Source: Hydra vulgaris (lineage: Eukaryota > Cnidaria > Hydrozoa > Anthoathecata > Hydridae). From it: 64,000 bases of DNA. The stretch lies in assembly GCF_038396675.1 (NCBI RefSeq), contig NC_088921.1:4441001-4505000 (forward strand). Direction: 5' to 3'. The notes under the pieces were generated by a model. The model had not been told where the DNA came from. It ran no database searches and was given only the letters and a program-made list of their open reading frames with translations. Below, piece after piece: positions 25,100 to 43,757 of this stretch. The stretch's first letter is position 1. Each line of letters begins with the position of its first letter. The position numbers were made by a program, and so were the translations under genes.

Positions 25100-25174
25100 T
25101 ATTTTTATAATTAAATAAAATAATCAAAAAAGTTAATCGTCATACCATTCGATATTTTCAACATTTTTTATTAT

Positions 25175-25758: not shown

Positions 25759-25773
25759 TTATAGACACATATA

Positions 25774-26268: not shown

Positions 26269-26279
26269 TCTAAAAAAAA

Positions 26280-26810: not shown

Positions 26811-26833
26811 TTTTTTTATATCCTAAAAAAAAT

Positions 26834-27138: not shown

Positions 27139-27299
27139 TCAGTTACTTTTTTTTATACCTGCCATTTTTTTTAAAAAAATTTTTTTATTTAAAAATTAAA
27201 AACAACTGTGAATTTCAAAAAAAAAATTAATGAATAAAAAAAATAAGCATAGCTTGAAAATTTTTTGTTCTAAAAATCAAAAAAAATTTTATATGATAT

Positions 27300-27755: not shown

Positions 27756-28080
27756 CTAAAAAAAACATTATATATCTAAAGAATTACATTTAAATAAAAA
27801 CATTTAAAATTTTAGCGCATACATACATTTCAAGCTCACTTGCACTCTGCTTTTTTTTTAAACTAAACAGTTCCTTTTATACTCTTTTTTAAAGCGAAAA
27901 GTACACAAAAAGACGTCATAGAGTTCAAAGTTCAACAATCGTACGTTGCTTATTGTTCAAAAAAAACTTGTTTTATTCTTGTTTTTTAATCTTGAATTTT
28001 ATTTGTTTAAAAAAAAAACAATGAAAAAAAAACATATAAAAGAAAGTTGTTTAAAATATTTTTTCATTCAACAAAAAAAA
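27756..28080. promoter_or_regulatory. Divergent intergenic region with TATA-like box
   Basis: This 325-bp gap separates the leftward dUTPase from a rightward gene. TATAAA at 28035-28040 lies about 45 bases upstream of ATG 28081. Long A and T runs fill the rest. It probably holds promoters for both directions. Confidence 0.45.
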
Positions 28081-28780: not shown

Positions 28781-28900
28781 TTTTAAATATTATTAAATTT
28801 TTTTTTGAGATATTTAAATGTATTGTTAATAAAAACTTGAAAAAAACCAGTTTATTACCAGAAACATTGTTTTTTTTATTCCCTTAAAAGGTAATTTCAA

Positions 28901-28912
28901 TGGGTATAAATA
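28901..28912 (+). promoter_or_regulatory. TATA-like box upstream of 28949
   Basis: GGGTATAAATAC lies 39-48 bases upstream of the ATG at 28949, a spacing matched at 28035 and 30649 for the next rightward genes. Confidence 0.5.
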
Positions 28913-28948
28913 CTTTGAAAATGTTAAAATACAGTCAGTTTTAAAAGA

Positions 28949-29882
28949 ATGACGAGCAAGCAAGTTGATCAATCTGTAGAGAAAGCGTTACAACTGTTTT
29001 ATCCAAATAATGAACTACATCCTATACTTCAAGAATTTCATCATTTGGATCACACGTATGAAGATTGGCTTAATATTATAAAAGAATATTTAACAAAATG
29101 GAATCTTCAAATAAATTTACCCGAGGAACAATATTCGGTTCTTTATCATGTTTTTATAATGAAAGATTATAATAACAATATGGACTTGTTTGCAAAATCG
29201 TTTAGAGAATGCATGTCATTTGAAGAACAAACGCTTAATTGGACTCGGGAAATGTATCAAGTTTGCGCTCTAATAAATGAAACTTTTTTAGAAATTATCA
29301 AAAAGGAATCAACACACCCGATATATAAATTGTACAAAGATAAGCTGGATGAATTTATTGCAAATTTTAAATACTTTAATCGAGCTTCGTTTAACACGTG
29401 GAAAAACAAATTAAAACTTTCTCTCAAATATTACTTTTTGTTTCCTTATTTGATTAATAATCATGGCGATTATTTGAATAACCATTACCGCGATTATGAA
29501 GAATTGCGAAAAAAAGTACATACCTTTAAAGTTTACTCTTCAAGCCAATTATGCCCGTTTTAGTTTTAATGACAAACTCTTTCACAATGGTTATTATACT
29601 ATATACACACCTATTCGCATTTATGATTATTTTTCAAAAACTGAAAAATACAAAATAGTGCAAGATAAAGTTTTAATTTACAAAGCTATTAATCAATGTA
29701 ATTTTTACCACAACTCGCCAATTGAATTGTTTCCGCAAGCAAACTGGTTTTCTTTTTTCAAAAGAAATTTTACAATATCTGCTATTCTTTACAAGAAAGA
29801 CGACAAACTTTACGATTACTTGAAGCATAAAGAAAGAAATATTGCAAACAAGGAAGAGTTGAAAATTGTCTTTCACTCATAA
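28949..29882 (+). pseudogene. Helical orphan protein, one frameshift
   Basis: The first 204-residue ORF (28949..29563) is strongly helical; its true continuation is in the frame of 29496..29882, the shift lying around the A-run at 29507-29520. Together they give about 310 codons. Tyr, Phe and Asn are abundant and there are no metal or nucleotide motifs. Not recognised. Confidence 0.5.
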
Positions 29883-29895
29883 AAAGAAACATTTG

Positions 29896-30576
29896 TTATT
29901 TTTTAATAATATTATATTTGGAAAAATTTTCATTTAAAAAAAATACATTTTCAAAACATGTACACGTATTCTTATTTTTACAGTTGTTATCCTTTAAAAA
30001 GTTTAAAAAATCTCGAAAATTGTTTGATGAATTTTCATCTCTATTAAAATAAAGTAAATCTTGCATGTATAATAACAACATTTTGGTTTCATATTTTGAA
30101 CAGTGATGTAAATGACAAATTTGAAATGTCAAATGAGTATAATGATATTCACATTTTTGTTCTCCATACCAATAAGGCATATTTTGCACTTTTGGAAATT
30201 TTAAATAATTCAAGTCAAAGAAATATAAATTGAGATTTAAAGATTTTAGAATACTTTTTTCAATGTCTCCTCCTTTAAACAATATTAAATTGTTTGTATA
30301 ATTTTTAAAAATAAGAGTCAAATATTCGTCAGTATTCCAACAAAAGATATGTTCGCCAGAAAAGGAATTATCAGGTTGATAAGTTAATCCGTGAATATGA
30401 CGATTGCAAAAGTTAAAAGTACTTTGTTCCTTGAAACTCGATTTATTAAAAGGTACACATGGTCAAATTTGAACGGGATAAATTTTGTTTCCATTAAACA
30501 TTCGCAAACACAGCTCTCTTAGACATCTTTTCCCCCATATATGTCGTTCTGTATTTTCAATATATTCGGCATCCAT
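29896..30576 (-). pseudogene. Orphan protein with LRELCLR motif, one TGA
   Basis: The frame from ATG 30574-30576 carries RCLRELCLRMF about residues 17-27, then TGA at 30463-30465, then stays open through the 141-residue ORF 29896..30321, which is rich in Cys and His (HLHHC, CKNKNTCTC). The LxxLCxR stretch resembles the BC-box-like motif of the 39.4-40.8 kb proteins. T10-AG lies just upstream at about 30587-30598. Confidence 0.45.
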
Positions 30577-30648
30577 AAACCATATCTAAAAAAAAAAGAG
30601 TTGTAAATCATAAATAACCTCTGTTTCTTTGAAAATTATTTTTGCAAG

Positions 30649-30656
30649 TATAAAAA
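30649..30656 (+). promoter_or_regulatory. TATA-like box upstream of 30689
   Basis: TATAAAAA is about 40 bases upstream of the ATG of the tail-anchored protein gene. Confidence 0.5.
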
Positions 30657-30688
30657 TGTAAAATGTGTTTAAATTTTAATTTAAAAAA

Positions 30689-31327
30689 ATGGAAAGAGTA
30701 GACAGTATAATTAAAAGAATTCACAACAACTGCGTTGTATGCGCTTTAGACGAAGTGAGTAAAAGATACAGCCAGTTTAATAAATCTGGCAACTCCTCTC
30801 CACATTCTCCTATTTCAGATGATGAACATACAAAAGATGAATACTCTAACAAATTGCTTCAAAAAATATTAAACTCCATACGAGCAAATCTTGATTCTAG
30901 CTCAATTGAAAAATGTTTCAATAATAGCAATTTTAAACACCTTTTAAACGAGCCTCAGGTTTGCTTTGACCATCAGAATCATTTTGAAAAATTAAAAAAA
31001 GACTATATGGATCAAAAAGACTGTATAGCAAAATATTATCATTCAAAACTTGTAGTTTTGGTCATGGAATCACAACCTAATAAAAGTCAGTTTGAAGCAG
31101 AAGGTGATCAAACAGACGGTTTTATAGATACGTTTAGTACAAAAGTGCTGCCAGCTGCTTCAACTCTAATTAAAAAACTCGAGGCAATTTTGCGAAAACA
31201 AACTGTTAAAAGAAGCATTGACGGGATAATAAAAGAAGAACCGACGGATAAAAAAACTTTATTTGTTAATATTTTACATGCTGTTGTTATAATATTTATT
31301 TCAAGTTTTTTTAGTATTGAAGAATAA
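30689..31327 (+). CDS. Tail-anchored CxxC protein B
   Basis: The 212-residue ORF has C-V-V-C at residues 15-18, C-F-D-H near residue 92, and a C-terminal hydrophobic segment (VNILHAVVIIFISSFF) followed by acidic residues. It shares this plan with the protein at 16752..17360. A serine-rich, acidic linker follows the CxxC. Its TAA overlaps the protease ATG (TAATG at 31325-31329), so the two genes are probably expressed together. Function unknown. Confidence 0.6.
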   Translation: MERVDSIIKRIHNNCVVCALDEVSKRYSQFNKSGNSSPHSPISDDEHTKDEYSNKLLQKILNSIRANLDSSSIEKCFNNSNFKHLLNEPQVCFDHQNHFEKLKKDYMDQKDCIAKYYHSKLVVLVMESQPNKSQFEAEGDQTDGFIDTFSTKVLPAASTLIKKLEAILRKQTVKRSIDGIIKEEPTDKKTLFVNILHAVVIIFISSFFSIEE

Positions 31328-32490
31328 TGTGCTTAAATGAGTCTTTAATTTCGTATTATTCTCAACCCGTGTATAAGAATTATTTTAAAGGTGTGTATGG
31401 CATTGACGAGTTAAGTCGATCCACAACCCATATTGACATTATTAAACGCATGAACAAAAACGGTTCTTTTATAATTTATAACAATGAAACAAGTAAAGAA
31501 GATGGTCAACACTGGCGAGCGCTGATAAATTTGGATGACGGTCATTTTTTTTGCTTTGACAGTTTAGGTCCAGAAAGCGTTCTTCGTCAAATTCCTTTTC
31601 ATCTAAGATATAACAGACATTTGTTTGAATCTGTAGACGAAGTTCAAACAAATTTAAAAATTAATACCTTGAATATAACTAATAACGAAATTGAAATTAA
31701 TTCTTATATAAAAAATACAAAACATTTTCCGTGCGAGTGGACACTTCATAATAAAGAATTTTATTGGTTTACACATTTCATCTTGAAATTTAGCGCAGAA
31801 ACTGGACAACAAAATGTCATGTTATCTTACAACAAAAATTGCTATCAATGGAATAACAGTAGTTTGTGTGGTGCTTTCGCGGCATATTTTTTAACAATTT
31901 TATTTAACATACCTGATTACAGATATGGTTCATCTATTTACATACCTTTACTTGACACTTTGTTAAACCGTCACTTTTTTGAAGTTTCTGAGCTTCATAA
32001 TTCTGAACAAATTCTGCTAAAGATGGCTCCATTCTTTAAATTTGTAAAAAAAGAATTCTTTCCTTATCTTGATACAACAGCCAAACGACTGTTTGAAAAA
32101 GACGTCTTGTTACCTTTATATTTCAAAAAACAAGAAAAACTGGAACGAGACTCGCTGTCGGCCAAATCCAAAGACAAAACAATTAATCGTGATATATATG
32201 AAGCACAAATATTGTCTGATAATACTGTACGCAATATTTTAAAAAGTCACGATTTGCTTAGAACAAATAATGAAACACAATGGAACAAAATCTCAATGCA
32301 GGATTTATTAGCTATACCTTCTATAATGAATGAAGAAAATATTTATTTAATGCAAAACGAAGAAAAAAAACAAATATACTTGAATAATTTTTCTCGATTA
32401 CAAACAATAGACAGATTTTTAGACAGACCTTGGGATGACGTGATCACAAAAGAACATTTAAAAAGGCTTTTTGATCTCAACTTGTTATAA
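31327..32490 (+). CDS. Adenain-like cysteine protease (maturation protease)
   Basis: The intact 387-residue ORF has the adenovirus-protease/Ulp1 catalytic order: His in DGQHWRALI (~residue 62), Asp in FFCFDSLG (~78), the Gln of NCYQWNNSS (~176) and the nucleophile Cys in SLCGAFAAYF (~183). This class cleaves capsid and core precursor proteins in Polintons and adenoviruses. The C-terminal ~170 residues after the core are an extension of unknown role. The start overlaps the upstream stop. Confidence 0.9.
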   Translation: MCLNESLISYYSQPVYKNYFKGVYGIDELSRSTTHIDIIKRMNKNGSFIIYNNETSKEDGQHWRALINLDDGHFFCFDSLGPESVLRQIPFHLRYNRHLFESVDEVQTNLKINTLNITNNEIEINSYIKNTKHFPCEWTLHNKEFYWFTHFILKFSAETGQQNVMLSYNKNCYQWNNSSLCGAFAAYFLTILFNIPDYRYGSSIYIPLLDTLLNRHFFEVSELHNSEQILLKMAPFFKFVKKEFFPYLDTTAKRLFEKDVLLPLYFKKQEKLERDSLSAKSKDKTINRDIYEAQILSDNTVRNILKSHDLLRTNNETQWNKISMQDLLAIPSIMNEENIYLMQNEEKKQIYLNNFSRLQTIDRFLDRPWDDVITKEHLKRLFDLNLL

Positions 32491-32494
32491 AAAA

Positions 32495-32746
32495 ATGCAA
32501 AGACAAGCTATATGTCCTTTACGCGACACTATCGAAGAACAATTGTGCAATACGTGTGGTGGTTACGGTCAATTATATTGTATTTTGGCAAAAGAAAATC
32601 GAAAAGCAGTTTTGGAAGAATTTAACAAATGTCTTGGCGTTATCAAGGACGATATATTATATGTTACATACGAGAAAAAGATATTTAAGTTACCAAAGAT
32701 TAACATAACTTGTGATTATTGCAACGGCAAAAAAAGTCTTTATTAA
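32495..32746 (+). CDS. Small double-CxxC zinc protein
   Basis: The 83-residue product has C-N-T-C-G-G-Y-G near its start and C-D-Y-C-N-G-K-K near its end, two half-sites like the CxxCxGxG knuckles of DnaJ-type zinc domains, so they probably pair to bind one zinc. The ATG at 32495 is four bases after the protease stop. An in-frame ATG at 32471 would overlap the protease; I prefer 32495 because of spacing. Confidence 0.55.
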   Translation: MQRQAICPLRDTIEEQLCNTCGGYGQLYCILAKENRKAVLEEFNKCLGVIKDDILYVTYEKKIFKLPKINITCDYCNGKKSLY

Positions 32747-32847
32747 ACGCAACAGAAACCAAAGTTTTCAAAAAATAAAAAAACATTTATTTTTGTATAT
32801 ACATTTTATTTAAATAAAAAATAAAATACAAATTAAAATTTTTTTCT

Positions 32848-33099
32848 TTATCGTACTTCAAAAGAGTAATCTTGCATATAAGGTTCGACAGCTTTTGTTA
32901 AATTTACCGTGTTTGGTTTTTTTCCTTTCCACGCTTTTTTTAAACTATACAAAAGAGAACCGACTTGCAAAGCATTTGACACGTTTTTCGGAGTTATGTA
33001 ATCGGCTAATCCGTGTCCCCGAGTTTTCTTTATTTTTCGTCTCAAAAAATGTCTTTTATTTTTAGCGCTTGTTTTTCTCATTTGCTTTCGAGTAGCCAT
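32848..33099 (-). CDS. Basic virion-core-type protein, 83 aa
   Basis: The N-terminal ~30 residues are highly basic (KNKRHFLRRKIKK), then TRGHGLADYITPKNV and a mixed C-terminus. Such basic-head proteins accompany DNA in adenovirus-like cores. Its start overlaps the upstream gene's end by 22 bases. Confidence 0.55.
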   Translation of the reverse strand: MATRKQMRKTSAKNKRHFLRRKIKKTRGHGLADYITPKNVSNALQVGSLLYSLKKAWKGKKPNTVNLTKAVEPYMQDYSFEVR

Positions 33100-33371
33100 A
33101 TTTGAAATGTATCTTTTATCACTTCAATAAAGTCATTATATAGCATTTCAAATTTTTTTTTTTTTTGACGAATTATAAATGTAATAATAGCCATATCAGA
33201 TGAACGTATTATTTTCATTTGATTGCTTGCGTCTACTCGGAAAAACAATTTAAAATTTTTATTTAAAGATTTTAACGTGCTATATGAAGAATCTAACGGT
33301 TGTAAATCCGAAACAGGCAAAGGCGAGGAAAAATTATTTTAAAACTCGGCCAAACATGTTTTGAAATCCAT
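33078..33371 (-). pseudogene. Unknown small protein, early TAA
   Basis: The frame starts at ATG 33369-33371, meets TAA at 33339-33341 after ten codons and then stays open for 87 codons. It overlaps the basic protein gene downstream. Not recognised. Confidence 0.45.
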
Positions 33372-33501
33372 GATTAAAACTTGTTATTTTTTTTAAAAGT
33401 TGCGTTGTTTATTAAAAAATTTTAAAAAGTCGCGTTATTTATTAAAAAAAAAATTAAAATTCAAACACTGTTAAATTTTAAAAAAATACAATTTTGTTTT
33501 T

Positions 33502-33885
33502 TTATAATAAAGGCAATTTCTTTCCTTCATATAAAACTCTATCATTATATTTTACAATGTACATATTTAATGCTACAACATATTCAAGTTCGAATCCGCC
33601 TAAAAAAGAAGTTAAACTCGAATCACCTTCATTTACATTACCACATATCATCTCGACCAAATGACCGTTTAAATATGAAAATAAAACAATATATTCTCCG
33701 CGATTCGAAACATCCATTCTGATATTTCTGATGTATCCTTTAACATCACGTTTCATGTCTTTTACCAACAAAGAAAATGTTTTTACGTCATTTTGCACAA
33801 TAGTAAAAAATGCGTTTAAAAAACAAGTTGAACATTTTTGTTTCTGATGACGAATAGTGCCAATTCGATGACAGCGTTTATACAT
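33502..33885 (-). CDS. Unknown protein, 127 aa
   Basis: Not recognised. It begins MYKRCHRIG with further cysteines (KCSTC) in the first 22 residues, perhaps a metal site, followed by a compact beta-rich domain. Its ATG lies one base after the stop of the pX-like gene (TAA-A-ATG), the same junction as capsid gene and its upstream neighbour. Confidence 0.55.
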   Translation of the reverse strand: MYKRCHRIGTIRHQKQKCSTCFLNAFFTIVQNDVKTFSLLVKDMKRDVKGYIRNIRMDVSNRGEYIVLFSYLNGHLVEMICGNVNEGDSSLTSFLGGFELEYVVALNMYIVKYNDRVLYEGKKLPLL

Positions 33886-33886
33886 T

Positions 33887-34048
33887 TTATTTTAAAAATA
33901 AAGTGTTAAACAGTGGTCCAAGCAATGGTATACTACCAAGTACGCTTCCTAAAATGCCTTGTCCGCGTTTTTTAAAGTGTTTTTGAGTGTTTACTCTTCC
34001 TCGTTTTTTAAATCTCCTCCTTCCATGATATTGTCGCGAGTTTTTCAT
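33887..34048 (-). CDS. Small pX-like basic core protein (second locus)
   Basis: This intact 53-residue protein has an arginine/lysine-rich head (HGRRRFKKRGR) and a hydrophobic glycine-rich tail (GILGSVLGSIPLLGPLF), the same architecture as the 5.3-6.0 kb genes, although 28 kb away. A role in virion DNA condensation is inferred. Confidence 0.6.
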   Translation of the reverse strand: MKNSRQYHGRRRFKKRGRVNTQKHFKKRGQGILGSVLGSIPLLGPLFNTLFLK

Positions 34049-34256
34049 TTTGTTAAAAAACACCTTTTCCGACTAAATTTAATCTTTAACTTTCTTTTGT
34101 TTTTTTATACTTGCTTTTTTATTTTTCTATTTCAAATCAAGTCTTTTTTACATATTCAATACTTTATTTTTTATCTTACTTCAAGTTCTTCATGAAGGAT
34201 TATTTGGTTTTGTTGATAAAATATTTTGTTGATATAAAATTTATGTTAACATTTAT

Positions 34257-34523
34257 CTAATGTTTTTTTGTCAAGACCCATTTATATATCGGCTGTCCTG
34301 CACGTCCATTTTTGATGTTTTGTCTATTTCTTTTATACGTTGCCTTTGTTTTTCGCTTGCAATAAAGAATTTTTTTACAATCCAATTGATCTACAACTAC
34401 TTGTAGATCTTTCATTCCCATTCCTAAATTTAATAAATTCACTGGTGGAGGACTGACAGGAAATACTCTAATATCAATTTCTCGCCTAGATGCTATTGAC
34501 CTTGTTCTTGACATTTTTTTCAT
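34257..34523 (-). CDS. Basic protein of the CKxI..CKR family, copy 1
   Basis: The 88-residue product is basic. Its second half (DCKKILYCKRKTK ... GRAGQPIYKW) lines up with the second half of the protein at 36433..36825 (NCKNIVMCKRNTN ... GRVGKKIKRW). The two are paralogues. A nucleic-acid-binding role is plausible from charge. No known family. Confidence 0.55.
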   Translation of the reverse strand: MKKMSRTRSIASRREIDIRVFPVSPPPVNLLNLGMGMKDLQVVVDQLDCKKILYCKRKTKATYKRNRQNIKNGRAGQPIYKWVLTKKH

Positions 34524-34760
34524 AAATTGTGTACATTTTGTTAAAATATATTTATACGAAATTTATAAAAGTATTTAATTTTACGCTGTATTTTTTCCTC
34601 TCTATACACGTTTAATTAACTTTACTTTTTTACGCCATTGTAATAATGATTTAAAATAATATTTGTGCCTCCCAACACTACCTTACTTTTACACCTTATT
34701 TGTCTTACTTGCATATCTTACTTTGTACACTTACTTTATTTTTCGAGTATTTTTTTCTTC
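34524..34760. other. T-rich spacer
   Basis: I see no gene. It is pyrimidine-rich on the plus strand with scattered TTACTT words leading into the tandem repeats. Confidence 0.4.
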
Positions 34761-35283
34761 ATTTTAACTTGCTTATTTTTCCTGCTTACTGACTTGTTTT
34801 TTTTTTAATAAAAAAATTTTATGTCCCCGGCACTGCCTTACTTGGCCTAACTTAATCATCTTACATACTTATTGTCTTACTTATGAGTAGTATTGTCTTA
34901 CTTATGAGTATTAACTTGCTTACTTATTTTCCTGCTTACTAACTTATTTATATTTCTTACTGAATTTTTTTTTTGCATGCTTAATTTTTGCCTGCTTACT
35001 TATAACTTCCAAGACAGACATTTTAACTGACTTATTTTTCTTGCTTAGTGACTTTTTTTTTTTGTAAAAAATTTTGTGTCCCCGACACTGTCTTACTTAG
35101 CCTTACTTATTCATCTTACTTACTTATTGTCTTACTTATGAGTAGGCCTACTTTTTTTTATTTAACCGCGGTTAACTTGCTTACTTATTTTCCTGCTTAC
35201 TAACTTAATTTATTTCTCACTTATTTTTTTTTTTTGCATGCCTAATTTTTGCCTGCTTACTTATAACTTTCTAGACAGACATC
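34761..35283 (+). repeat. Two tandem ~259-bp repeats
   Basis: Unit 1 (34761-35019) and unit 2 (35020-35283) both begin with ATTTTAACT, contain CTGCTTACT/CTTGCTTAGT variants, GTCCCCGRCACTG, a CTTACTTATGAGTA motif and end GCCTGCTTACTTATAACTT. Shorter TTACTTA words repeat inside each unit. The array separates the left and right gene blocks and holds no ORF. Confidence 0.75.
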
Positions 35284-35512
35284 ACCAAGTCTCGTGTATT
35301 CACCAGAACTATAGTGTTAACATATAACTTTCTAGACGGACATCACCAAGTCTAGTGCACTCACTATGACTATAGTGTTTTTACATATAACTTCCTAGAC
35401 ATTACATCACTAAACCGTACGGTTATAGTGTTTTTTACACATAACTTTCTAGACAATACATCACTAAACCATACGGTTATAGTGTTCACTAAACCTTACG
35501 GTTATAGTGTTT
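35262..35512 (+). repeat. Four ~60-bp tandem repeats
   Basis: Units share ATAACTTTCTAGAC, ACATCACNAA and a terminal TATAGTGTTTTTACAT. The last two contain an added CCGTACGGTTATAGTG and one is partly duplicated. The array directly follows the 259-bp repeats. Confidence 0.7.
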
Positions 35513-35547
35513 TTACATTTAATGACATGATAAAGATCGAAGTTTAA

Positions 35548-35632
35548 GGGCGAAGCTGAGATTTGAACCCACGAACGGTTCATGAATGGCGATTACAACA
35601 TAGTGCAGAATGCGAACGCACTATGCTACGTA
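35548..35632 (-). other. tRNA-like sequence with box A and box B
   Basis: Read on the minus strand it has TAGCATAGTGCG (box-A-like) and GGGTTCAAATC (box B, T-loop) at about the right spacing for a tRNA or tRNA-headed SINE. The acceptor arms do not pair and the D and anticodon stems are poor, so a functional tRNA is unlikely. It may be a SINE head or a pol III promoter relic. Confidence 0.4.
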
Positions 35633-35659
35633 TACGTGATGTGTTTATGTACTTTGAAA

Positions 35660-35990
35660 TCTTTTAAATTATTGTTTCGCTCTAAGAAAGAGAACAGCTA
35701 TTTGTTTTTCTAAACACTTTTCTCAGAAATCATTACTCTTTGAAGGGAATGAATAGAAAAAGAAAAAGCGTTTAATAAAGCTGAACAAACATTAAAGTTT
35801 ATTAAAGTTTTTATTAATTATTTTGATCAGAAATAAAAAAAATGTTTGTTATAACATATATTTAATATTTCTTTCAAATACATAATTCTTTTGTAATAAT
35901 TTATAAAAAAATAAATATAGCTGAGCAAATATTACTTGTTTTTTTCAGATAAATAGCAGTTTGTTTTGAAAAAAATATCAATTCGCCACA
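35660..35990. other. Gap before the accessory island
   Basis: No ORF. It holds a small direct repeat (ATTAAAGTTT) and a TTTTTTCAG at 35940-35949, possibly a splice acceptor in the leader of the next gene. Confidence 0.35.
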
Positions 35991-36422
35991 ATGAACACAA
36001 CAGAAGTTATCACTATATTTGATGATAAGGATTTGGAATTCTATGAAACGGTGTTAAAACCAGACGGAGTGCCTATTGAAGATTTTATTGCGGCTTATAA
36101 TATGGTCATGGATTCGATGAAAGAAAAAGAAATTGATGTGATTGATTTAACAGTCGAAGATAATGTTAGTCAAGTCAAAGATAACGTTACTCAAGTCAAA
36201 GATGAAGATTCAATCGACTTTAAAGTTACAGAGGTAAATATTTTTCAACCATAAAAATAAGTTTCGCTTTTTTTTTTCTTTTTTTTTTTTATTTTCTTTC
36301 ACTTTTTTTAGAGAAAAAAAAAGAAAAGAAGAAGTAAAAGCTATAAAGCACGGAACCATAAAAGAAAAATTTTATATCTTTTAAAAAGATACGGTTTTGA
36401 TAACCAGTGTGTAACATTATAA
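35991..36422 (+). CDS. Spliced SUMO-interaction-motif protein
   Basis: Exon 1 (35991..36233) and exon 2 (36312..36422) are separated by a 78-bp phase-0 GT-AG intron with a long polypyrimidine tract; the predicted product is 117 residues. Exon 1 has an acidic segment with VIDLTVED, a textbook SUMO-interaction motif (hydrophobic core flanked by acids), then a duplicated D-N-V-x-Q-V-K-D. Exon 2 starts with a dense K/R cluster, a probable nuclear-localisation signal. Without splicing the protein ends at 36254 with no basic tail. It may bind SUMO or SUMOylated host proteins in the nucleus; that is inference from the motif. Confidence 0.65.
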
Positions 36423-36432
36423 ATAGTTTTTT

Positions 36433-36825
36433 TTACAACTTTTTTGAGAATATATTGAGTTTTTTGTTTAATTTTCTTTGTATATAATTTTCTTCTGTTT
36501 GTCGCCAACGTTTTATTTTTTTACCGACTCTTCCCAGTTTTCGATTTGTTTTGTTATCTTTACATTTTTTATTTGTATTACGTTTGCACATAACTATGTT
36601 TTTACAGTTGCTTGGAAGATTTTGTTGAAGAGTAATCGGATTATTTGTTTGTGTTAATTTTGAAAACTTTAAGCGTGGCACCGTCGCTTTTGATCGCGCC
36701 ATATATTCTAAAACTAAATTTTTTATTTTATTTAAAAAATATTCAAACTGTTTTTTTTTTTCAAAATATAAAAAGTTACCGGCTGTTTCTTTAGTTCTAG
36801 GCGTATATCTTATTTTTGCCATCAA
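36433..36825 (-). CDS. Basic protein of the CKxI..CKR family, copy 2
   Basis: The 130-residue product is strongly basic. Its C-terminal half is paralogous to the protein at 34257..34523 (CKNIVMCKR then LGRVGKKIKRW). The N-terminal half is extra. The gene is convergent with the spliced gene, their ends 10 bases apart, and reads against the rest of the island. Confidence 0.55.
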   Translation of the reverse strand: MMAKIRYTPRTKETAGNFLYFEKKKQFEYFLNKIKNLVLEYMARSKATVPRLKFSKLTQTNNPITLQQNLPSNCKNIVMCKRNTNKKCKDNKTNRKLGRVGKKIKRWRQTEENYIQRKLNKKLNIFSKKL

Positions 36826-36913
36826 TAAAACTATTTAAAAATTTTTTCTTATATATATATATATATATATATTTGGCAGTAACAATATAACTTGCTTTGT
36901 TTAGAATATAAAA

Positions 36914-37225
36914 ATGGGTATAAATTCGAGAAGAGAATTGGAAAAAAGTATTGAAAATGTTGTGGGCGCTCGGTGGAAAGAAATGGCCAAATATTTTGGA
37001 TTTGCTGATAATACCATAGAAATCATTGATCACGATTACTTGCGTATTTATGATAAATTTTCAAGAGTATTTCAATTATTATTTCAACGCGAACAACACG
37101 AATGGGCAATCATAAACATTGTAAACAGTTTAAAAATATGGCTAAACGATGAAAAAAACCGTCTTGAACGCGACGAACTGTTTATAAGCAATTTAAACGC
37201 GTTGATTATTAAAGTTGATAATTAA
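36914..37225 (+). CDS. Death-domain protein (accessory island)
   Basis: The 103-residue protein has a Death-domain core: ARWKEMAKYFGFADNTIEII with the conserved W between helices 1 and 2, then a D-H-D-Y turn and three further helices. It differs from the 16385..16675 Death domain in the second half (QHEWAIINIVNSLKIW), so the two are not a recent duplication. It consists of the domain alone, without a receptor or kinase, and would compete for or bridge host Death-domain complexes. Intact. Confidence 0.78.
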   Translation: MGINSRRELEKSIENVVGARWKEMAKYFGFADNTIEIIDHDYLRIYDKFSRVFQLLFQREQHEWAIINIVNSLKIWLNDEKNRLERDELFISNLNALIIKVDN

Positions 37226-37501
37226 TAATTAATAGATTATTAATAAAATTTTGTAAATTTTCTCGGAAAAAATCTTTCTAAATTTCTCTTTTTGAAAAAC
37301 ACCTTTAATATTTTCTCAGAATTTTATCAATGAAAATCATTTTCTCTTTAAATTTGTTTTTACAGTTTACTGCCGTTTTTTATTTTAATCCGATCATTTA
37401 ATTTTGTCGTTTCACACTTGTTTAATAAATATTTACTTTTTTTATATAAGTTTAAAGTTTAGAAAAAAAAATTTCACACTTGAAATTTTCAATTAAAAAA
37501 A
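37226..37501. other. Spacer
   Basis: No ORF. TTTATATAAG at 37439-37448 may be a TATA element for the TRAF-like gene about 55 bases downstream. Confidence 0.35.
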
Positions 37502-38588
37502 ATGGAACCATTAATCAAGTAAGTTTTGTTTTTAAAAATGTTTTTTTTTTTTTGTATTTTCTTTTTCAAAAATGAGCTCATAAATTAATTCTTTAGTCAC
37601 AAAAACACTGAAAAAATATGCTGCTGTTATTGTGGAATGTTGTAAAATATCGAGAACCAGCTTGATCATCAACAAAACTGTTTGGAAAAAATTAATTCGA
37701 CTTCTTGCTTTTGCTGTGGAATCAATGTAAATAATTTAGAAACGCACGAATGCCGATATGAAGAAATTCAACCAAGCACCTTTTTGTGTTTTTTATGCGT
37801 CCATCAAATATCAACTGAAATAATGGCAAACCATGCCACAGATTGTTTATCACATTTAGAAGAAAGATTAATAATAAAGGCAACTGAAAATATAAACGAA
37901 ACCATAAAATCAAACACAAATGACTTTAACAAAATAATCAATAACTGTATGCTTTCACTTTCCAATTCAAACAAAAAAATTGCTCAACTGACAAGTTTGG
38001 TCACTTGCAAAAATAAAGAATTTGAAAATCATGTCAAAAGCTCAACGGAAAACTTGACAAATTTGATAAACGAAAAAAATAAAGAAATTGCAAATTTAAA
38101 ATCTCTTGTTTGCGATATGAAAATATCAAAAGAAAATTTTCCAATCACTGATAATCAAATTATCAAATGTGACCAAATGGATCTCAGATTACTGTCCAAT
38201 GAACCGTTTTATTCCGACCCTGCTTACACCACAGACGGTTATTTTTATCGAATAAAAATGTATGGGTACGAAATTGCTGAAAAAAAAATGGCCATTTACT
38301 TTCAACTTTTAAAATCTCCACATGATCACTTTTTTAAAATGGCCCTTTAATAGAAGAGTTATTGTTACTATGCGAAATAATGTTCACGAAATGAAAAAGG
38401 AAATTTCATTTGGTAATTATAACCAAGGTCAACTTGAAAATGCCGGATATTGTCGATACTTTTACCAACCTGTTTATGAATATAATCCGGGTATCGGATA
38501 TACAGAATTTATAAATCACGAACATTTGAAAAATTTTATTGTAAACAACATGTTGTATATTAATGTGTCTATTGAAAATCACATTTAA
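37502..38588 (+). pseudogene. TRAF-like protein: zinc fingers, coiled coil, TRAF-C (MATH) domain
   Basis: A short exon (37502..37518) is followed by a GT-AG intron (37519..37596) and a long exon. Three C2HC-type fingers appear (starting CCYCG near 37620, CFCCG near 37711, CFLC near 37790), then a coiled coil (~37860-38130) and a TRAF-C domain: EPFYSDPAY, GYFYRIKMYGY, MAIYFQLLKSPHD, WPFNRRV and a final INHEHLKNFIVNNMLYINV. This is the domain order of TNF-receptor-associated factors without a RING. An in-frame TAA lies at 37643-37645 and a frameshift near 38340, just before WPF. In host cells TRAFs link receptors to NF-kB/JNK. A RING-less version could act as a dominant decoy (inference). Confidence 0.82.
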
Positions 38589-38648
38589 ATATATTTTCTT
38601 TTTTAATTGTATTAAATAATTGATTTTAAAACTTTTTTTATTTTTTAG

Positions 38649-39055
38649 CAAAAAAAATTATTGAAAAATATTTCAGAGAACTTGCAGATCATCTTACGAG
38701 TGACAACACACGTTGTTTAAAATTTTGTCTATCTATACCGCTCCGTTTGAAAGAACAAATAAAAGATGGCTTTGATTTAATGGAACACTTTAACACATAT
38801 TCCATTTATCACGACAACAAAGAATTCATATCGCCTTAAAGCAAATTTAATCTTTTATTAGAAATGTTAGCAATAATCGGAAGAACGGATTTATATATAA
38901 AATATAAGAAGAAAATTCCTCAATTGCCAACATATGAAGACTGCATAAATTTATCAAATGGTCAGACGCCAAAAGCAGCGATAATTGACGGACAACCAAA
39001 CAAAAGCGATTACTATCCGGCCGAAGTTGTGGTTGCAAAACAAAAAGAACTTTAA
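38649..39055 (+). pseudogene. Death-effector-domain (DED)-like protein, one TAA
   Basis: The frame from the AG at 38647-38648 shows the DED pattern: LADHLTSDNTRCLKFCL, then KEQIKDGFDLMEHF, and after TAA 38837-38839 the closing LLLEMLAIIGRTDL with the RxDL charge-triad motif of DEDs. A ~50-residue polar tail follows. DEDs occur in FADD, caspase-8/10 and FLIPs; a single-DED viral protein would be FLIP-like in concept. No ATG is visible at the 5' end, which begins directly after a T-rich AG, so an upstream exon or trans-splicing is implied. The stop falls between helices 5 and 6. Confidence 0.68.
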
Positions 39056-39190
39056 ATTTTTATAACAAATGATACTTTATAATATAAAAAATTAATATTA
39101 ACTTTAATTTTTGTTGTTATTCACACGCAGTACAATATATATTATAATTATTATTTTAATTATTTTTGTCATTTTTTTTTTGTTTTAGAA

Positions 39191-39304
39191 CCAACTAAAA
39201 AAAATGCTCATAAAAATAAGGCAAATTCACAGACATTCACACGATTTCAGAAAATTTCAAAGATAAGTTATCAAACTGCTCTGAAGATTCTTTGCCAACG
39301 CTGA
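39191..39304 (+). other. Candidate short exon, lysine/serine-rich
   Basis: TTTTTTTTTGTTTTAG (ending 39188) precedes a 37-codon open stretch ending at TGA 39302-39304. It may be a terminal exon of the DED-like gene or a gene remnant. I found no good donor upstream. Confidence 0.3.
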
Positions 39305-39358
39305 GATTAGCAAATTTAAATCAAAATTGAACAAAGAAAAAAAAACAAAAAAGAAAAT

Positions 39359-40054
39359 ATGACGGAGAAAGAAACGAAGACTCTTAAAAGAAAATACAGC
39401 AGCAATTTATTTGTTATCAAACACAAACGTCCTCGAATGATAATGGAAAATGGAAAACATAGTTCATTTAATCCAGAGTTGAGACGATACACATACTACA
39501 CTGAAATGTTTATTAATAAAGCTCAGATATGGCTTGATAAAGATAATCTTCCTCGCACATTTCAAGAACTTTATACCGACAAACCGATACTTTCTTTATT
39601 AGATTTATGTAAACGCAAAATGGTATTTATTCGAATAAAAAAAGAAATGACAAATTTAACTCAAAATGTACTTTGTGTTCTCGAAAAATACTTTGATAAA
39701 AAAACTCTTCTTTACTACCTCGAAAAAAGAAAAGAAAATTCGATGAAAAAAAAAGTTGCCAAATATATACTAAAAACTGATAAAGTATCAACAAAAAACT
39801 TGGACAAGTTTATAAAACCTCATTTAAAATTTTTTATTTTGCAGCATAATGTTTTAATAAATTTAGTTTATTTATTTGCACAAGTATATTATGAAACTGA
39901 ATATTCAAAAAAAAAATATTATCACTTGAATAAAGATTATCTGCACCATTTTTTTAAAATTATTTTAAAAACTATGGAATGGTTTACCGATCAATATAAC
40001 TTTGTCATTTATGAAAAATTTATTTGTAATAATAGTATACTCGATTATCTTTAA
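39359..40054 (+). CDS. Accessory protein, BC-box-like, paralogue 1
   Basis: The 231-residue helical protein contains SLLDLCKRKM (about residues 79-88), close to the Elongin B/C-binding BC-box pattern S/T-L-x3-C-x3-hydrophobic. Its C-terminus (FFKIILKTMEWFTDQYNF) lines up with that of the next gene, so the two are paralogues from an old duplication. Viral proteins with BC boxes recruit cullin ubiquitin ligases; here that is a motif-based guess. Intact; TAA is 22 bases before the next ATG. Confidence 0.55.
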   Translation: MTEKETKTLKRKYSSNLFVIKHKRPRMIMENGKHSSFNPELRRYTYYTEMFINKAQIWLDKDNLPRTFQELYTDKPILSLLDLCKRKMVFIRIKKEMTNLTQNVLCVLEKYFDKKTLLYYLEKRKENSMKKKVAKYILKTDKVSTKNLDKFIKPHLKFFILQHNVLINLVYLFAQVYYETEYSKKKYYHLNKDYLHHFFKIILKTMEWFTDQYNFVIYEKFICNNSILDYL

Positions 40055-40076
40055 TAAAAGTTTTTTTTTTTTCAGA

Positions 40077-40820
40077 ATGAAAAACATTAAAAAATACACT
40101 CAAGAAGTTGGTGACACGGAAAATTATGAAGAACCTAAAGCTGATTTTTTTTGTGTTTTTCATCGAGATTTAGAAGAAAATATAGTCTGGGAAGAAATAA
40201 TTAAACGGAAAAAAGCAAAACGAGAAAACAAGTTTATTCCTTATTCTTACTATTTAAAAGAGGTGGCACAAAACACAAGAATTTGGTTTAATATTGACAT
40301 TTACGATCAAATCATGAAAGAAATAAAATGTTACCCCAATGGAGAAATTGATTTGTCATTAAAACAACTCTGTTTAAGAAAATTATCAATAAAAAAGTTA
40401 AAAAATAAAATGGAAGCAGTCATGGATGAAATTGAATCTATTTTGGTCAATTTCAAACTTAATTTTGACAAAATCTTGCGGAGATTTCATGACGAATATG
40501 GTTTTTCTGAATATAGGACACATAGAATATTTATAAAAAATTTAAACTATACTCGCGGACCGTATTGGCTATGGAGAACTTCTACAGATTTGTCTTTTTT
40601 TATTATACAAAAAGCTTTAATAAAAGGACTTCAAAGTATTTTTAGTTGTATTTTTGCAGAAATAAATTTTAAACTTTGTTTGGATAACCAATGCAAAAAA
40701 TATCTTGACAATATATTTAATATTATTTTAAAAACTATTTATTGGTTAAAAAATCAATACGAATTTATAAATGCAAATTATTTTCTTAATCATAAAATGA
40801 TTTACGAATATTTTGTATAA
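40077..40820 (+). CDS. Accessory protein, BC-box-like, paralogue 2
   Basis: The 247-residue protein contains SLKQLCLRKL, a good match to the BC-box pattern, and a C-terminal NIFNIILKTIYWLKNQYEF that parallels the preceding gene. I chose ATG 40077 because it follows a T-rich CAG (ending 40075); the frame is open further upstream but overlaps the previous gene. The stop at 40818-40820 is followed by TTTTTTTAG and the next ATG at once. Confidence 0.55.
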   Translation: MKNIKKYTQEVGDTENYEEPKADFFCVFHRDLEENIVWEEIIKRKKAKRENKFIPYSYYLKEVAQNTRIWFNIDIYDQIMKEIKCYPNGEIDLSLKQLCLRKLSIKKLKNKMEAVMDEIESILVNFKLNFDKILRRFHDEYGFSEYRTHRIFIKNLNYTRGPYWLWRTSTDLSFFIIQKALIKGLQSIFSCIFAEINFKLCLDNQCKKYLDNIFNIILKTIYWLKNQYEFINANYFLNHKMIYEYFV

Positions 40821-40829
40821 TTTTTTTAG

Positions 40830-41257
40830 ATGGATAAAAAAATTATAAAAAAAGGAAGAACAGGAAAAAGAAACAGGTATTGCGAAAAAAAAGAAACAGA
40901 AAACACGTTCTCAACTGAAGGTATGTATACAGTTACATTTATAAACATGTCAAACTTGAGCACAACCTAATCACTTTTTTTTCTTTTTTAGAAATAAATT
41001 ATGCCTACAAAAAAACAAAAAACGAAAAGGAGAAAGATATGAAAAGAAAAAAAATGAAAGAGCTTGAGAAAATTAAAAAAGACTTTGACAAACCGGGCAA
41101 AAGATATTTTTGCTCTGGTTGCTGTTTATGCAGTTGGCCAGAAAAACCATGCTGCTGGAAAGAATGCTCGTTTATATGGGATAGAGACGAACAATGTGCG
41201 GGATGTCATTTTTGCATCCCACATTTAAAACAAGAATTTTTTGAAAACTGTAAATAG
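40830..41257 (+). CDS. Spliced lysine-rich, cysteine-rich protein
   Basis: Exon 1 (40830..40920) and exon 2 (40992..41257) flank a 71-bp GTATGT...TTTTTTAG intron; the predicted product is 118 residues. The N-terminal two thirds are lysine-rich. The C-terminus has a dense cysteine cluster (CSGCCLC, PCCWKEC, CAGCHFC) able to bind two zinc ions. The ATG is preceded directly by T7-AG after the previous stop. Not a recognised family. Confidence 0.6.
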
Positions 41258-41451
41258 ACTTTAAACATTTTTATTTCATATTTCAATATTTTTTCTTTTT
41301 ACAAGTCAATTTTCAAGATTATATACTTTTTTATTGCAAAATTGGTATTTTTTATTGCTGTATTCTTTTATATCATGTCTGAAGCGGTCGAATAACAAAA
41401 AAGTTTTTTGATTTTTTAAAAAATCTTTTTTCCACCATGACTCTCTTTAAT

Positions 41452-41598
41452 TTAATAAACAGGGAAACTATAGTGCGTGCTATCGTACGGAATACCATTA
41501 TGATACTTGATCGTGCTATCGTCTTGAGGGTTGTACGGTTTCACGACTGATATTTTTTTCGGCTGCTCAAACTGTTGCAACGGTTTATTTTTCTCCAT
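41452..41598 (-). CDS. Small intact ORF near right TIR, 48 aa
   Basis: A 48-residue frame from ATG 41596-41598 to TAA 41452-41454 is proline/tyrosine-rich with a repeated PYDS/YDSTHYS character and less AT-biased codons than its surroundings. Its ATG directly follows TATTTTTAG, the junction type of other non-structural genes. It points leftward, convergent with the Cys-rich gene. Function unknown. Confidence 0.45.
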   Translation of the reverse strand: MEKNKPLQQFEQPKKISVVKPYNPQDDSTIKYHNGIPYDSTHYSFPVY

Positions 41599-41872
41599 CT
41601 AAAAATAATGTCAATGCCGAGTTTTTATCGATTATTTTTATCGTTTTCTTGCGTTTTTTTTTATACCATTTTTTTCAACACCTTTTTATTAACAGATTCA
41701 AATTTATAAACTTGAAAATTTTTTTCCTTTAAGAATAACCCGTTTAAAAATTTTTTTAGATTAGAATAAAAATGCCAATTTATTCACCATAATTGACACA
41801 AGAAGAAAAAAGATTTTATTGCAGAAGAAGCGCTCAGTTCTAAATTATCTTACAACTGTGAAGAAATAATAT
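41599..41872. other. Spacer before right TIR
   Basis: It holds TTTTTTTAGATTAG at about 41752 and a very short ATG frame at 41772 broken by TAA, perhaps a decayed small gene. Nothing else is seen. Confidence 0.3.
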
Positions 41873-42421
41873 AAAAACATTTTTTTTCTTTTTCAACCGC
41901 TTAATTTATGGCAAACGACTCTATCGAGATTATAAACCGTTTTTTTTTTTTAATTAATTCAATAATATAAGCGATTTTTTAATTCTTTTCAAATCGCCAT
42001 GTCACAACATGCACACTGTGACAAGAATGACCCTGTCACGCATGCGTCATTTTCACTTGTCACCATGTCACTTGTCCCTTGTCACTTGTCACCTTGTCAC
42101 CATGTCACCATGTCACCACTTGTCACCATGTCACTTGTCACCACTTGTCACTATGTCACCTTGTCACTTGTCACCATGTCACCATGTCACCATGTCACCT
42201 TGTCACCATGTCACTTGTCACTTGTCACTTGTCACCATGTCACTTGTCACCTTGTCACTTGTTACACCCCTTGACGCCCCATTTAACGCTCTCACCTTTT
42301 CGGTCAGTACCCCTCACCTTTTTGGTCATGTGAGATCCATTACAACCAATCACGTTCTTAGGGCGCCATTATCATCATAAGAAGAAGAAAAAAAAAAAGT
42401 CCGAATAATATATCTCATCAA
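41873..42421 (-). repeat. Right terminal inverted repeat of the Polinton
   Basis: This is the inverse of 4658..5202 and includes the complementary CTTGTCAC/CATGTCAC minisatellite (about 42050..42270), GGCGCCATTATCATCATAAG and the terminus ATATCTCATCAA. Confidence 0.92.
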
Positions 42422-43757
42422 CTACTCTACATCACTTGCTTTATTAAGTCTAACAGAAAAAGTTAAAGATTCTCTAGATGAAGGAATGTTTGGATGTGGC
42501 ATTTTTATTGACCTTCAAAAGGCATTTGACACTGTAGATATTAACATTTTACTTTATAAGTTATCCTACTATGGTATTAGAGGAGTCTCAAACTTTTTGT
42601 TCAAATCTTTCCTTACTAATAGAACTCAATTAGTATCCGTTAGTTGGATGAGCTCAGACCTAAACGATATCAAAGTAAGTGTTCCTCAGGGATCTGTCCT
42701 TGGCCCTTTATTGACATGTCTAAAGCTTTAAAATTTTGTAGAGTCCAACACTTTGCAGATGACACAAACCTTCTCTATTTTATTAAGCCTATAAAAAAAA
42801 TCAACAAATATGTTAACTATGATCTTAAAAAACTATGCCTCTGGCTAAATGCCAACAAAATTTCCCTTAACTCCAAAAAAACTGATTTAATATTAGTTAA
42901 AAGTCGTCACAAAAAATTAGATCAGCAGCTCAAAATTAAGTTAAATGGGAAAAAACTTTGGTGCAAATTTGTAAATTATTTGGGTATGAAGCTAGACAAA
43001 ATCTTAGCCTGGACTTACCATTATAACAGTTTATCTATAAGTTGAAGAGATCCCTTGCCATCCTGTCCAAGCTAAGACATTTTATACAACAAAAAACTTT
43101 GAAATCTATTTACTATGCTTTGTTTCACTCTCATCTCACATATTGCCTACTATCATGGAGTCAAAACATAAGTATTGTAATTTGCCTTTTATGCAGAAAA
43201 AAGCAGTCAGGGTTATTGAATTTCTACCAAAAAATGCACATACATTCCCATCTTTTAACACACAACAAATTTTAAAAGTGCATGATATAATCAAAATTGA
43301 AAACTGTTTATTTATTCAGAGCTGCCTAAACAAAAAGCTACCTCCTATATTTAATAAATGGTTTACTCTACGCAGTACAATTAGCTGTCAACTTACAAGA
43401 AATTCTTGCAGAGGTGCACTGAGTGTGCAAAAATATAATACAAAATCTTACGGCAAACATTCCTGTAAATACTCTGCATTAATGGACTGGAATCAAACTC
43501 AAAATAAATTAAAATTAATCCCTTTTAGGAATATTAAAAAATATGTTCTCAAAACCAAATTAAAATACTACTTGATATACATCAAGATAAATAGAAACAA
43601 CAGTAGTATCACTGGTGATAATAGATAAATCACCATAAAAAATATATAAGATACAAATATGAATATAGACTAATTGCAACCTTCTGTGAGTGTATTATTT
43701 ATTTTATTTGCTTTTTTTTTTTTTTTTTTGTTTTGTTTTGTTTTGTTTTGTTTTGTT
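42422..43757 (+). pseudogene. LINE reverse transcriptase, 3' half
   Basis: It continues the reverse transcriptase cut by the Polinton. IDLQKAFDTVD (first catalytic Asp), VPQGSVLGP and the catalytic FADD at 42752-42763 are visible, then the thumb and C-terminal domain to about 43628. A small deletion lies after VLGPLL (~42715), with further frameshifts near 43040 and 43190. The 3' end has a TTTTG microsatellite (43727-43757). Not intact. Confidence 0.85.

What the first reader, a model, noticed from the sequence alone, without database searches (positions are those of the whole stretch)
35991..41257. Accessory island of death-fold, TRAF, SUMO and ubiquitin-type proteins in a Polinton
One 5-kb block next to the right TIR encodes a Death domain, a zinc-finger/coiled-coil/TRAF-C protein, a DED-like protein with RxDL, a SUMO-interaction-motif protein and two BC-box-like proteins; a second Death domain lies at 16.4 kb. 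The motifs are read directly. The idea that this is a captured host-signalling toolkit that blocks apoptosis or TRAF/NF-kB responses is inference, but the concentration of interacting domain types makes coincidence unlikely. I do not know of a described Polinton or adintovirus with all of these.
Basis: partly seen in the sequence, partly recalled or inferred. Interest (0 to 1): 0.95.

Follow-up and report, generated by a model that had tools for sequence, protein, structure and literature searches.

The report
Death-signalling gene cassette in Hydra Polinton
A large virus-like mobile element in the Hydra genome carries near one end a set of small genes resembling the animal's own cell-death and inflammation adaptors (Death domain, TRAF, death-effector domain), and related elements elsewhere in the genome carry similar sets in the same place, so it looks like a kept viral tool for handling the host's death response rather than a chance pile-up.

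Summary
The island is real and lies inside a 37.8-kb Polinton-type element (4659-42420; 6-bp target duplication; 93% identical inverted repeats; inserted in a LINE frame that closes when the flanks are joined). It stands in the same order in the 18 other copies examined, single genes missing, so these are not host exons. Both Death domains, the TRAF-C/MATH domain and the DED are supported. The window's 63-aa "RxDL" ORF is the tail of a broken DED gene; 11 of 18 other copies hold a 137-138-aa DED protein. TRAF is also broken here, full-length in 7 of 19 copies. For 35 of 63 divergent capsid loci (47 of 77 in all; capped lists) a TRAF ORF lies 29-45 kb away on the expected strand; random 0.2. 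Between five such elements dN/dS is 0.15-0.32 for TRAF and DED. NCBI names 24 of 27 relatives found "TRAF-like [Hydra vulgaris]". Best reading: effector-less adaptor decoys that rewire death-receptor/NF-kB signalling. Direction (block or trigger) is untested. BC-box and SUMO readings remain motif-level.

The parts
4659..42420 (.). Polinton-type element, 37,762 bp, between the outer ends of its inverted repeats
   Evidence: target duplication and repeat ends; integrase core (rve 2.1e-7) and PIF1 helicase (5.5e-38); PolB motif C-like DTDS, EndoVII-like motif, Walker A; capsid-protein candidate in 77 scored places of the genome
4653..4658 (.). target-site duplication, left copy (ACTACT)
42421..42426 (.). 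target-site duplication, right copy (ACTACT)
4659..5202 (+). left terminal inverted repeat, contains short GTGACAAG-type tandem repeats
   Evidence: 93.2% over 558 aligned columns, 15 gap openings
41873..42420 (-). right terminal inverted repeat
16388..16675 (-). Death-domain-only protein, 96 aa, among the core genes
   Evidence: Pfam Death 3e-14; RIPK1 Death domain 2.5e-7; whether other copies keep it was not tested (search not answered)
35991..36254 (+). small acidic protein with SIM-like VIDLTVE; variable repeat length between copies
   Evidence: 17 of 18 ORFs hold VIDLTVE; pooled pN/pS 0.38
36914..37225 (+). Death-domain-only protein, 103 aa
   Evidence: 74 matches in the genome
37682..38350 (+). 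TRAF-like gene, first piece (two CCHC-type fingers seen by eye, coiled coil, start of MATH); broken in this copy
   Evidence: open relatives of 316 aa
38322..38588 (+). TRAF-like gene, second piece in another frame (rest of MATH domain)
   Evidence: TRAF-mep_MATH 2.9e-7; TRAF chain 7ypc, E 0.012
38591..39055 (+). DED gene, broken in this copy (start seen in other copies is missing, one stop inside); ORF 38864-39055 is its last part with RxDL
   Evidence: relatives Pfam DED 1.3e-7 to 8.4e-7, caspase-8 DED
39359..40054 (+). orphan protein 1 with BC-box-like SLLDLCKRK, 231 aa
   Evidence: no known family or homologue
40077..40820 (+). orphan protein 2 with BC-box-like SLKQLCLRK, 247 aa, distant paralogue (30%) of protein 1
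41039..41257 (+). cysteine-rich 72-aa protein, probably metal-binding (inference)
   Evidence: found in 16 of 18 other copies

Best explanation
A Hydra vulgaris Polinton lineage carries a kept cassette of adaptor domains stripped of their effector parts: one or two Death-domain-only proteins, a RING-less TRAF-like protein (finger-like Cys/His pairs, coiled coil, MATH) and a DED-only protein. Shown: presence, order, multi-copy nature, recurrence in divergent elements, low dN/dS for TRAF and DED. Inferred: made during infection or reactivation, each protein enters the matching host complex (Death domains with RIPK1/FADD-like adaptors, DED with FADD/caspase-8-like filaments, MATH trimer with TNF-receptor-type tails) and, lacking kinase, caspase or RING, caps or diverts it, so that the infected cell neither dies nor raises an NF-kB-type alarm before virions are made.
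For: Element and insertion. Same block in the 18 other copies examined, with single genes missing: DED tail in 17 of 18, second orphan protein 17 of 18, Cys-rich protein 16 of 18. Domains. Divergent elements: a TRAF ORF at 20-50 kb on the expected strand for 47 of 77 capsid loci, 35 of the 63 divergent ones, 0 on the opposite strand; 300 random placements of the TRAF hits gave mean 0.22, maximum 2. Of 52 divergent Death-domain hits, 4 have a TRAF ORF within 2.5 kb downstream (random mean 0.014, maximum 1, 1000 placements) and 5 lie at the right distance and strand from a capsid gene (random 0.07, maximum 2); 7 distinct loci. Two tandem Death-domain-like ORFs with TRAF in L033, L034, L036, L037, and a DED ORF in the first three (Pfam). 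dN/dS between five divergent elements: TRAF 0.19-0.32, DED 0.15-0.28, Death domains 0.27-0.79. No RING model in Pfam for the five TRAF relatives tested. In the cnidarian Nematostella dsRNA induces apoptosis genes including caspase-8 and TRAF3-like (PMC11251625, passages).
Against: No expression, binding or cell-death data. The only tested viral TRAF in print that I saw promotes apoptosis, and has a RING (PMC3352826, abstract and section 18). 30 of 77 capsid loci have no listed TRAF neighbour, among them 2 of 14 same-family ones, and 7 of 19 same-family TRAF places have no listed capsid gene; lists are capped, so absence is not proven. 45 of 52 divergent Death-domain hits are not tied to an element here and may be host genes; THO complex subunit 1 Death domains also match the profile (8.7e-7). 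Within the family pN/pS is 0.63 for the Death domain and 0.85 for orphan protein 1 on few changes. TRAF and DED are broken in this copy, and TRAF is full-length in 7 of 19. L037's Death domain scores only 0.0025 and one L035 DED-tail piece shows no DED match. dN/dS pairs are few, not independent, chosen through Death/TRAF hits, and were not tested for significance. AlphaFold models are low confidence.
Confidence: 0.6

Rival explanations
1. Same cassette, opposite sign: the proteins trigger or speed host cell death (release of virions, or killing of cells invaded by a competing virus, as a superinfection or virophage-like defence).
For: ISKNV ORF111L, a viral TRAF, binds TRADD and drives caspase-8 apoptosis (PMC3352826, abstract). 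DED and Death-domain proteins can seed as well as cap assemblies (recalled). An ORF in L038 has a full FADD layout, DED plus Death domain (Pfam 3.2e-14 and 4.9e-10; PDB FADD 7.5e-8), which could bridge rather than block.
Against: In the cassette itself the domains stand alone, without caspase, kinase or RING, the layout of known dominant-negative forms (recalled). L038 was not shown to lie in a Polinton.
Confidence: 0.2
2. Passive cargo: the elements carry TRAF/Death-domain genes with no benefit, and the numbers reflect element copy number only.
For: Many copies are broken (TRAF full-length in 7 of 19); pN/pS of orphan protein 1 and the Death domain is weak within the family; vertebrate Mavericks have accessory regions with diverse ORFs (PMC8097293, passages).
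Against: TRAF stays at one place and strand between elements whose capsid proteins are only 57-61% identical, and dN/dS is 0.15-0.32 for TRAF and DED between elements; useless cargo should not stay open that long (inference).
Confidence: 0.08
3. The genes now serve the host: Hydra uses element-borne TRAF and Death-domain proteins in its own innate immunity.
For: NCBI annotates relatives as Hydra TRAF5-like, TRAF3-like and TRAF2-like genes; many places are open over 300-394 aa.
Against: Copies sit at linked positions in mobile elements and many are decayed; no fixed, element-free gene was shown here.
Confidence: 0.1

Closest known systems
Polinton/Maverick elements and adintoviruses (a Hydra polinton, P1-HM, is named in PMC11071308, passage; vertebrate Mavericks, PMC8097293, passages)
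   Same: Terminal inverted repeats, 6-bp target duplication (hallmark recalled), rve integrase, B-type polymerase motifs, accessory ORFs flanking the core
   Different: 37.8 kb against 12.7-24.6 kb for intact vertebrate Mavericks; PIF1 helicase; death-fold/TRAF cassette, of which my searches found no report (listings only, open-licence papers only)
ISKNV ORF111L, viral TRAF of megalocytiviruses (PMC3352826, abstract and section 18)
   Same: Virus-borne TRAF with coiled coil and MATH domain
   Different: ORF111L has a RING and belongs to a fish iridovirus; here no RING was detected, finger-like Cys/His pairs instead, and it travels with Death-domain and DED genes in a mobile element
vFLIPs and PYD-only or CARD-only decoys (recalled, no call)
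   Same: Death-fold domains without effector, acting by entering host assemblies
   Different: vFLIPs carry two DEDs; here one DED plus separate Death-domain-only proteins and a TRAF, as a set
Giant Gypsy-like retroelements of planarians with MATH_TRAF_C and BIR motifs (PMC6431247, passage)
   Same: Mobile element with TRAF-C-type cargo
   Different: Retrotransposon, not a DNA virus-like element; no Death/DED set in the passage, and 'death' occurs nowhere in that text

Membership tests
Polinton/Maverick | Terminal inverted repeats and 6-bp target-site duplication | tested here: met
   ACTACT on both sides, repeats about 545 bp, 93% identical; the insertion splits a LINE reverse-transcriptase frame that reads on in the empty site
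Polinton/Maverick | Retroviral-type (rve) integrase | tested here: met
   rve E 2.1e-7 (31.6 bits, 1 bit under the curated cut-off of 32.6) at 11648-12589
[quoted passage not shown]
   DTDS motif and EndoVII-like motif; Endonuclease_7 3.8e-5; frame broken in this copy, no PolB Pfam model hit on the pieces
Polinton/Maverick | Double jelly-roll major capsid protein, packaging ATPase, Ulp1-type protease | tested here: inconclusive
   Capsid candidate 6246-7946 matches no Pfam model at E 1, no PHROG, no solved structure; named from length, place and multi-copy linkage; Walker A at 16082-16105; Peptidase_C48 0.0043, under cut-off
TRAF family | TRAF-C/MATH domain | tested here: met
   8.9e-15; 4.8e-20; TRAF 7ypc 7.7e-10, TRAF5 1.8e-5
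TRAF family | N-terminal RING and TRAF-type zinc fingers | tested here: not met
   No RING or zf-TRAF model in Pfam for L003, L002, L005, L008 or L033 (only zf-C2HC_2 0.024 for L033). So a TRAF-C protein, not a canonical TRAF (human TRAF1 also lacks a RING: recalled)
Death domain superfamily, Death subfamily | Profile match to Death domain | tested here: met
   16.4-kb protein 3e-14. 37-kb protein 0.0045 alone, under cut-off; of its five relatives four score 5.3e-6 to 2.5e-9 and L037 0.0025; joint profile to RIPK1 3.5e-8. The second tandem ORF of divergent elements is weaker: 0.0047, 0.014, 0.00019
Death domain superfamily, Death subfamily | Six-helix death fold | tested here: inconclusive
   all-helical model, five helices, mean pLDDT 57.9; no fold search could be run
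Death domain superfamily, DED subfamily | Profile match and RxDL motif | tested here: met
   six relatives 1.3e-7 to 4.2e-6, all below the curated cut-off of 35.9 bits; L035 tail piece no match; RTDL in our family, RNDI in the others; caspase-8 DED 7.5e-4
BC-box / elongin C adaptor | BC box, Cullin box and elongin C binding | tested here: inconclusive
   SLxxLCxRK shared by the two paralogues; no Pfam family model, no homologue; the BC-box consensus is recalled; binding not testable here
SUMO-interaction motif protein | Hydrophobic SIM core next to acidic residues, SUMO binding | tested here: inconclusive
   VIDLTVE in 17 of 18 ORFs; the SIM consensus is recalled; binding not testable here

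The most novel reading that the evidence does not exclude
Hydra Polintons encode a near-complete set of death-receptor adaptors (Death domain, DED, TRAF-C, perhaps a FADD layout), kept by selection for virus function, and much of the annotated 'TRAF5-like' expansion of Hydra is viral. The extrinsic death/NF-kB pathway of a cnidarian would then be an antiviral front old and strong enough for a mobile DNA virus to keep a whole counter-kit against it.
Probability: 0.5. Interest if true: 0.85.

Novelty: new variant of a known kind. Interest (0 to 1): 0.75.

Why it matters
Apoptosis modulators are known from large animal DNA viruses (recalled), but a kept Death/TRAF/DED set in Polintons would show that these elements act as viruses facing an animal cell-death defence, and would make that testable in Hydra. 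It also warns that counts of TRAF and Death-domain genes in cnidarian genomes may include virus genes: in this genome 35 of 100 divergent TRAF places examined sit at the expected distance and strand from a Polinton capsid gene (capped lists, so a lower bound).

Tried and rejected
Rejected: that the 63-aa RxDL ORF is a chance motif. I first judged it so because it appeared as an ORF in 1 of 19 copies, but my length filter had hidden the longer gene; one search shows 137-138-aa DED ORFs. Rejected: host exons. Led nowhere: viral-contig searches with the capsid protein, TRAF alignment and FADD-like protein (patterns matched, no relatives); protein search with the 16.4-kb Death domain (none) and with the two orphan proteins (3128 candidates, none significant); PHROGs and NCBIfam; capsid against PDB. 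Structure predictions were low confidence. Not done because machines did not answer or were switched off: genome-wide search with the 16.4-kb Death domain, with the DED family and with the FADD-like protein; DNA downstream of the divergent cassettes; fold searches.

Rows dropped: two second pieces of broken copies (72 of 74 places used); second pieces, N-terminal pieces and the unlisted rest (119 places used of 171 matches; the tool had scored 126 of 662 candidates); one second piece (77 of 78; 77 of 805 candidates scored). In the random placement (mean 0.22) the lengths of contigs C3, C4 and C5 were guesses and that figure was not rerun; one search used better values (C4 still approximate) for the Death-domain placements.
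Full report
The window is G000:C2:4441001-4505000 of a 911.5-Mb, 15-contig genome. A protein search with a TRAF relative returned 27 proteins, all labelled Hydra vulgaris, on contigs whose lengths include 61,145,917 and 60,989,097, exactly those of G000 C13 and C6. I take the host to be Hydra vulgaris.

The element. Inverted repeats bound 4659-42420. The 6-bp duplication ACTACT stands on both sides, the repeats are 93% identical over about 545 bp, and joining the host flanks lets a LINE reverse-transcriptase frame read on. Inside are an rve integrase, a PIF1 helicase and a Peptidase_C48-like ORF (E 0.0043, under cut-off), an EndoVII-like stretch, a DTDS motif of a B-type polymerase and a Walker-A ORF. 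The 567-aa ORF at 6246-7946 is taken as the capsid protein by size, position and multi-copy linkage; no database confirmed it. The polymerase region is broken over several frames, so this copy is decayed.

The island, gene by gene. 35991-36254: small acidic protein with VIDLTVE, kept in 17 of 18 ORFs while the part behind it varies in repeat number. 36914-37225: Death-domain-only protein; alone it scores under the Pfam cut-off, but it hits RIPK1's Death domain (1.2e-4) and a profile with five relatives hits that at 3.5e-8 (THO complex subunit 1 Death domains follow at 8.7e-7). 37682-38588: TRAF-like gene in two frames; the second piece passes the Pfam MATH cut-off, and the open 316-aa relatives score 8.8e-15 to 8.9e-15 for TRAF-mep_MATH (4 of 4 tested) and 7.7e-10 against a solved TRAF (L003). 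No RING or zf-TRAF model was found. 38591-39055: DED gene, broken here; 11 of the 18 other copies hold 137-138-aa ORFs, with Pfam DED 1.3e-7 to 8.4e-7 in the three tested. 39359-40054 and 40077-40820: distant paralogues (30%) sharing SLxxLCxRK, otherwise orphans. 41039-41257: cysteine-rich protein. A second Death-domain protein at 16388-16675 is strong (3e-14); whether other copies keep it was not tested, as that search did not complete.

Other copies. The right ends of 18 other copies, found through the Death domain, were fetched. SIM protein, Death domain, both TRAF pieces and orphan protein 1 match in all 18 (some only in part: the Death domain of L032 and orphan protein 1 of L030 are short remnants), the DED tail in 17, orphan protein 2 in 17, the Cys-rich protein in 16, the inverted repeat in 16, in this order. 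Full-length ORFs among 19 copies: SIM protein 17, Death domain 14, TRAF 7, orphan protein 1 11, orphan protein 2 8, Cys-rich protein 11; DED 11 of the 18 others. Within the family pN/pS is 0.37 (TRAF), 0.43 (DED), 0.38 (SIM protein), 0.48 (orphan 2), 0.63 (Death domain), 0.62 (Cys-rich) and 0.85 (orphan 1), on few changes, so only weakly informative.

Divergent elements. The capsid search gave 14 same-family places and 63 with 57-61% identity (77 of 805 candidates scored). The TRAF search, as used, gave 19 same-family and 100 divergent places with 35-49% identity (126 of 662 scored). For 47 of 77 capsid loci (12 of 14 same-family, 35 of 63 divergent) a TRAF ORF lies 20-50 kb away (observed 29.5-45.4 kb) on the expected strand, none on the other strand in that range; random placement gives 0.22. 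Two same-family and 28 divergent capsid loci have no listed TRAF partner; both lists are cut by the tool, so the counts are lower bounds and absence is not proven. Of 52 divergent Death-domain hits, 7 are tied to a TRAF neighbour or a capsid gene in the right geometry, against random means of 0.014 and 0.07; the other 45 are unplaced and may include host genes. Reading six such places: L033, L034 and L036 hold two tandem Death-domain-like ORFs, acidic ORFs, a TRAF gene with CCHC-like fingers (in two ORFs in L036; in L034 the frame is open over 352 aa but the first ATG gives 244 aa) and a DED ORF; L037 holds two Death-domain-like ORFs and TRAF up to the end of the stretch; L035 holds TRAF and DED-tail pieces, the latter without a Pfam DED match. 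L038 holds a Death-domain ORF and next to it a 175-aa DED-Death protein, the FADD layout; that L038 lies in a Polinton was not tested. Among L033-L037, dN/dS is 0.19-0.32 for TRAF, 0.15-0.28 for DED and 0.27-0.79 for the Death domains. The pairs are few and not independent, were chosen through Death/TRAF hits and were not tested for significance, but they are the best evidence that TRAF and DED serve the element.

Mechanism. Shown: a set of adaptor domains without effector parts, kept together. Inferred: they enter host death-receptor and TNF-type assemblies and cap or divert them. The sign is open. ISKNV ORF111L, the viral TRAF in print, binds TRADD and induces caspase-8 apoptosis (PMC3352826, abstract and section 18), but it carries a RING. 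In Nematostella dsRNA induces apoptosis genes including caspase-8 and TRAF3-like (PMC11251625, passages), so a virus of a cnidarian would meet such a defence.

Structure. AlphaFold2 on the Death domain (two sequences) gave an all-helical model at pLDDT 57.9; on the TRAF relative P0001 (12 sequences) a hairpin-helix start, long helices of coiled-coil type and a C-terminal strand-rich domain at pLDDT 52.2. Neither is good enough to decide, and fold searches could not be run.

Literature (listings unless stated; open-licence papers only). 'Polinton + death domain + TRAF': 0 papers. 'Adintovirus + apoptosis': 1, a birnavirus paper. 'Polinton + apoptosis': 31, 15 listed, none on this by title or abstract start. 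'Polinton/Hydra/Maverick/accessory genes', three of four: 25, 15 listed. 'Adintovirus + Polinton': 20, 15 listed; in PMC11071296 the terms death domain, apoptosis, TRAF and Hydra do not occur, in PMC11071308 apoptosis and death do not, in PMC8097293 apoptosis and death do not. 'Hydra + Polinton + TRAF': 3; in one, a passage reports MATH_TRAF_C and BIR motifs in planarian giant retroelements (PMC6431247); the other two were not opened. The adintovirus founding paper (PMC8502044) is not held, so a mention there cannot be excluded.

Noticed in passing
4201-4658 and 42427-42731: The element is inserted in a non-LTR (LINE-type) reverse-transcriptase frame, which reads on across the joined flanks (LINE identity by eye, no family search).
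   Followed up: yes
L038:1786-2313: FADD-layout ORF (DED plus Death domain, 175 aa, one open frame) next to a Death-domain-only ORF, with Lys/Arg-rich small ORFs on the other strand.
   Followed up: partly
L033, L034, L036, L037: Divergent elements carry two tandem Death-domain-like ORFs (94 and 102-109 aa) where our family has one at this place.
   Followed up: partly
G000: NCBI-annotated Hydra TRAF5-like, TRAF3-like and TRAF2-like proteins (24 of 27 hits) are relatives of element-borne genes; gene counts of Hydra TRAFs are probably inflated by Polintons.
   Followed up: partly
22350-22663: 45-bp tandem repeat inside the ORF 22271-23191, giving a YYEKNKDKIAKKQLE-type repeat.
   Followed up: no
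33505-33885 (-): Small ORF outside the island on the other strand, full length in 14 of 19 copies, pN/pS 0.37; no Pfam model above cut-off.
   Followed up: no
4833-5013 and 42030-42243: Both inverted repeats contain an irregular GTGACAAG/GTGACATGG-type minisatellite; alignments of the repeat to other copies are gapped.
   Followed up: no
G000 C3, C12, C8, C2 near contig ends: Several unplaced Death-domain hits with open frames of about 105 aa lie within about 1.5 Mb of contig ends.
   Followed up: no
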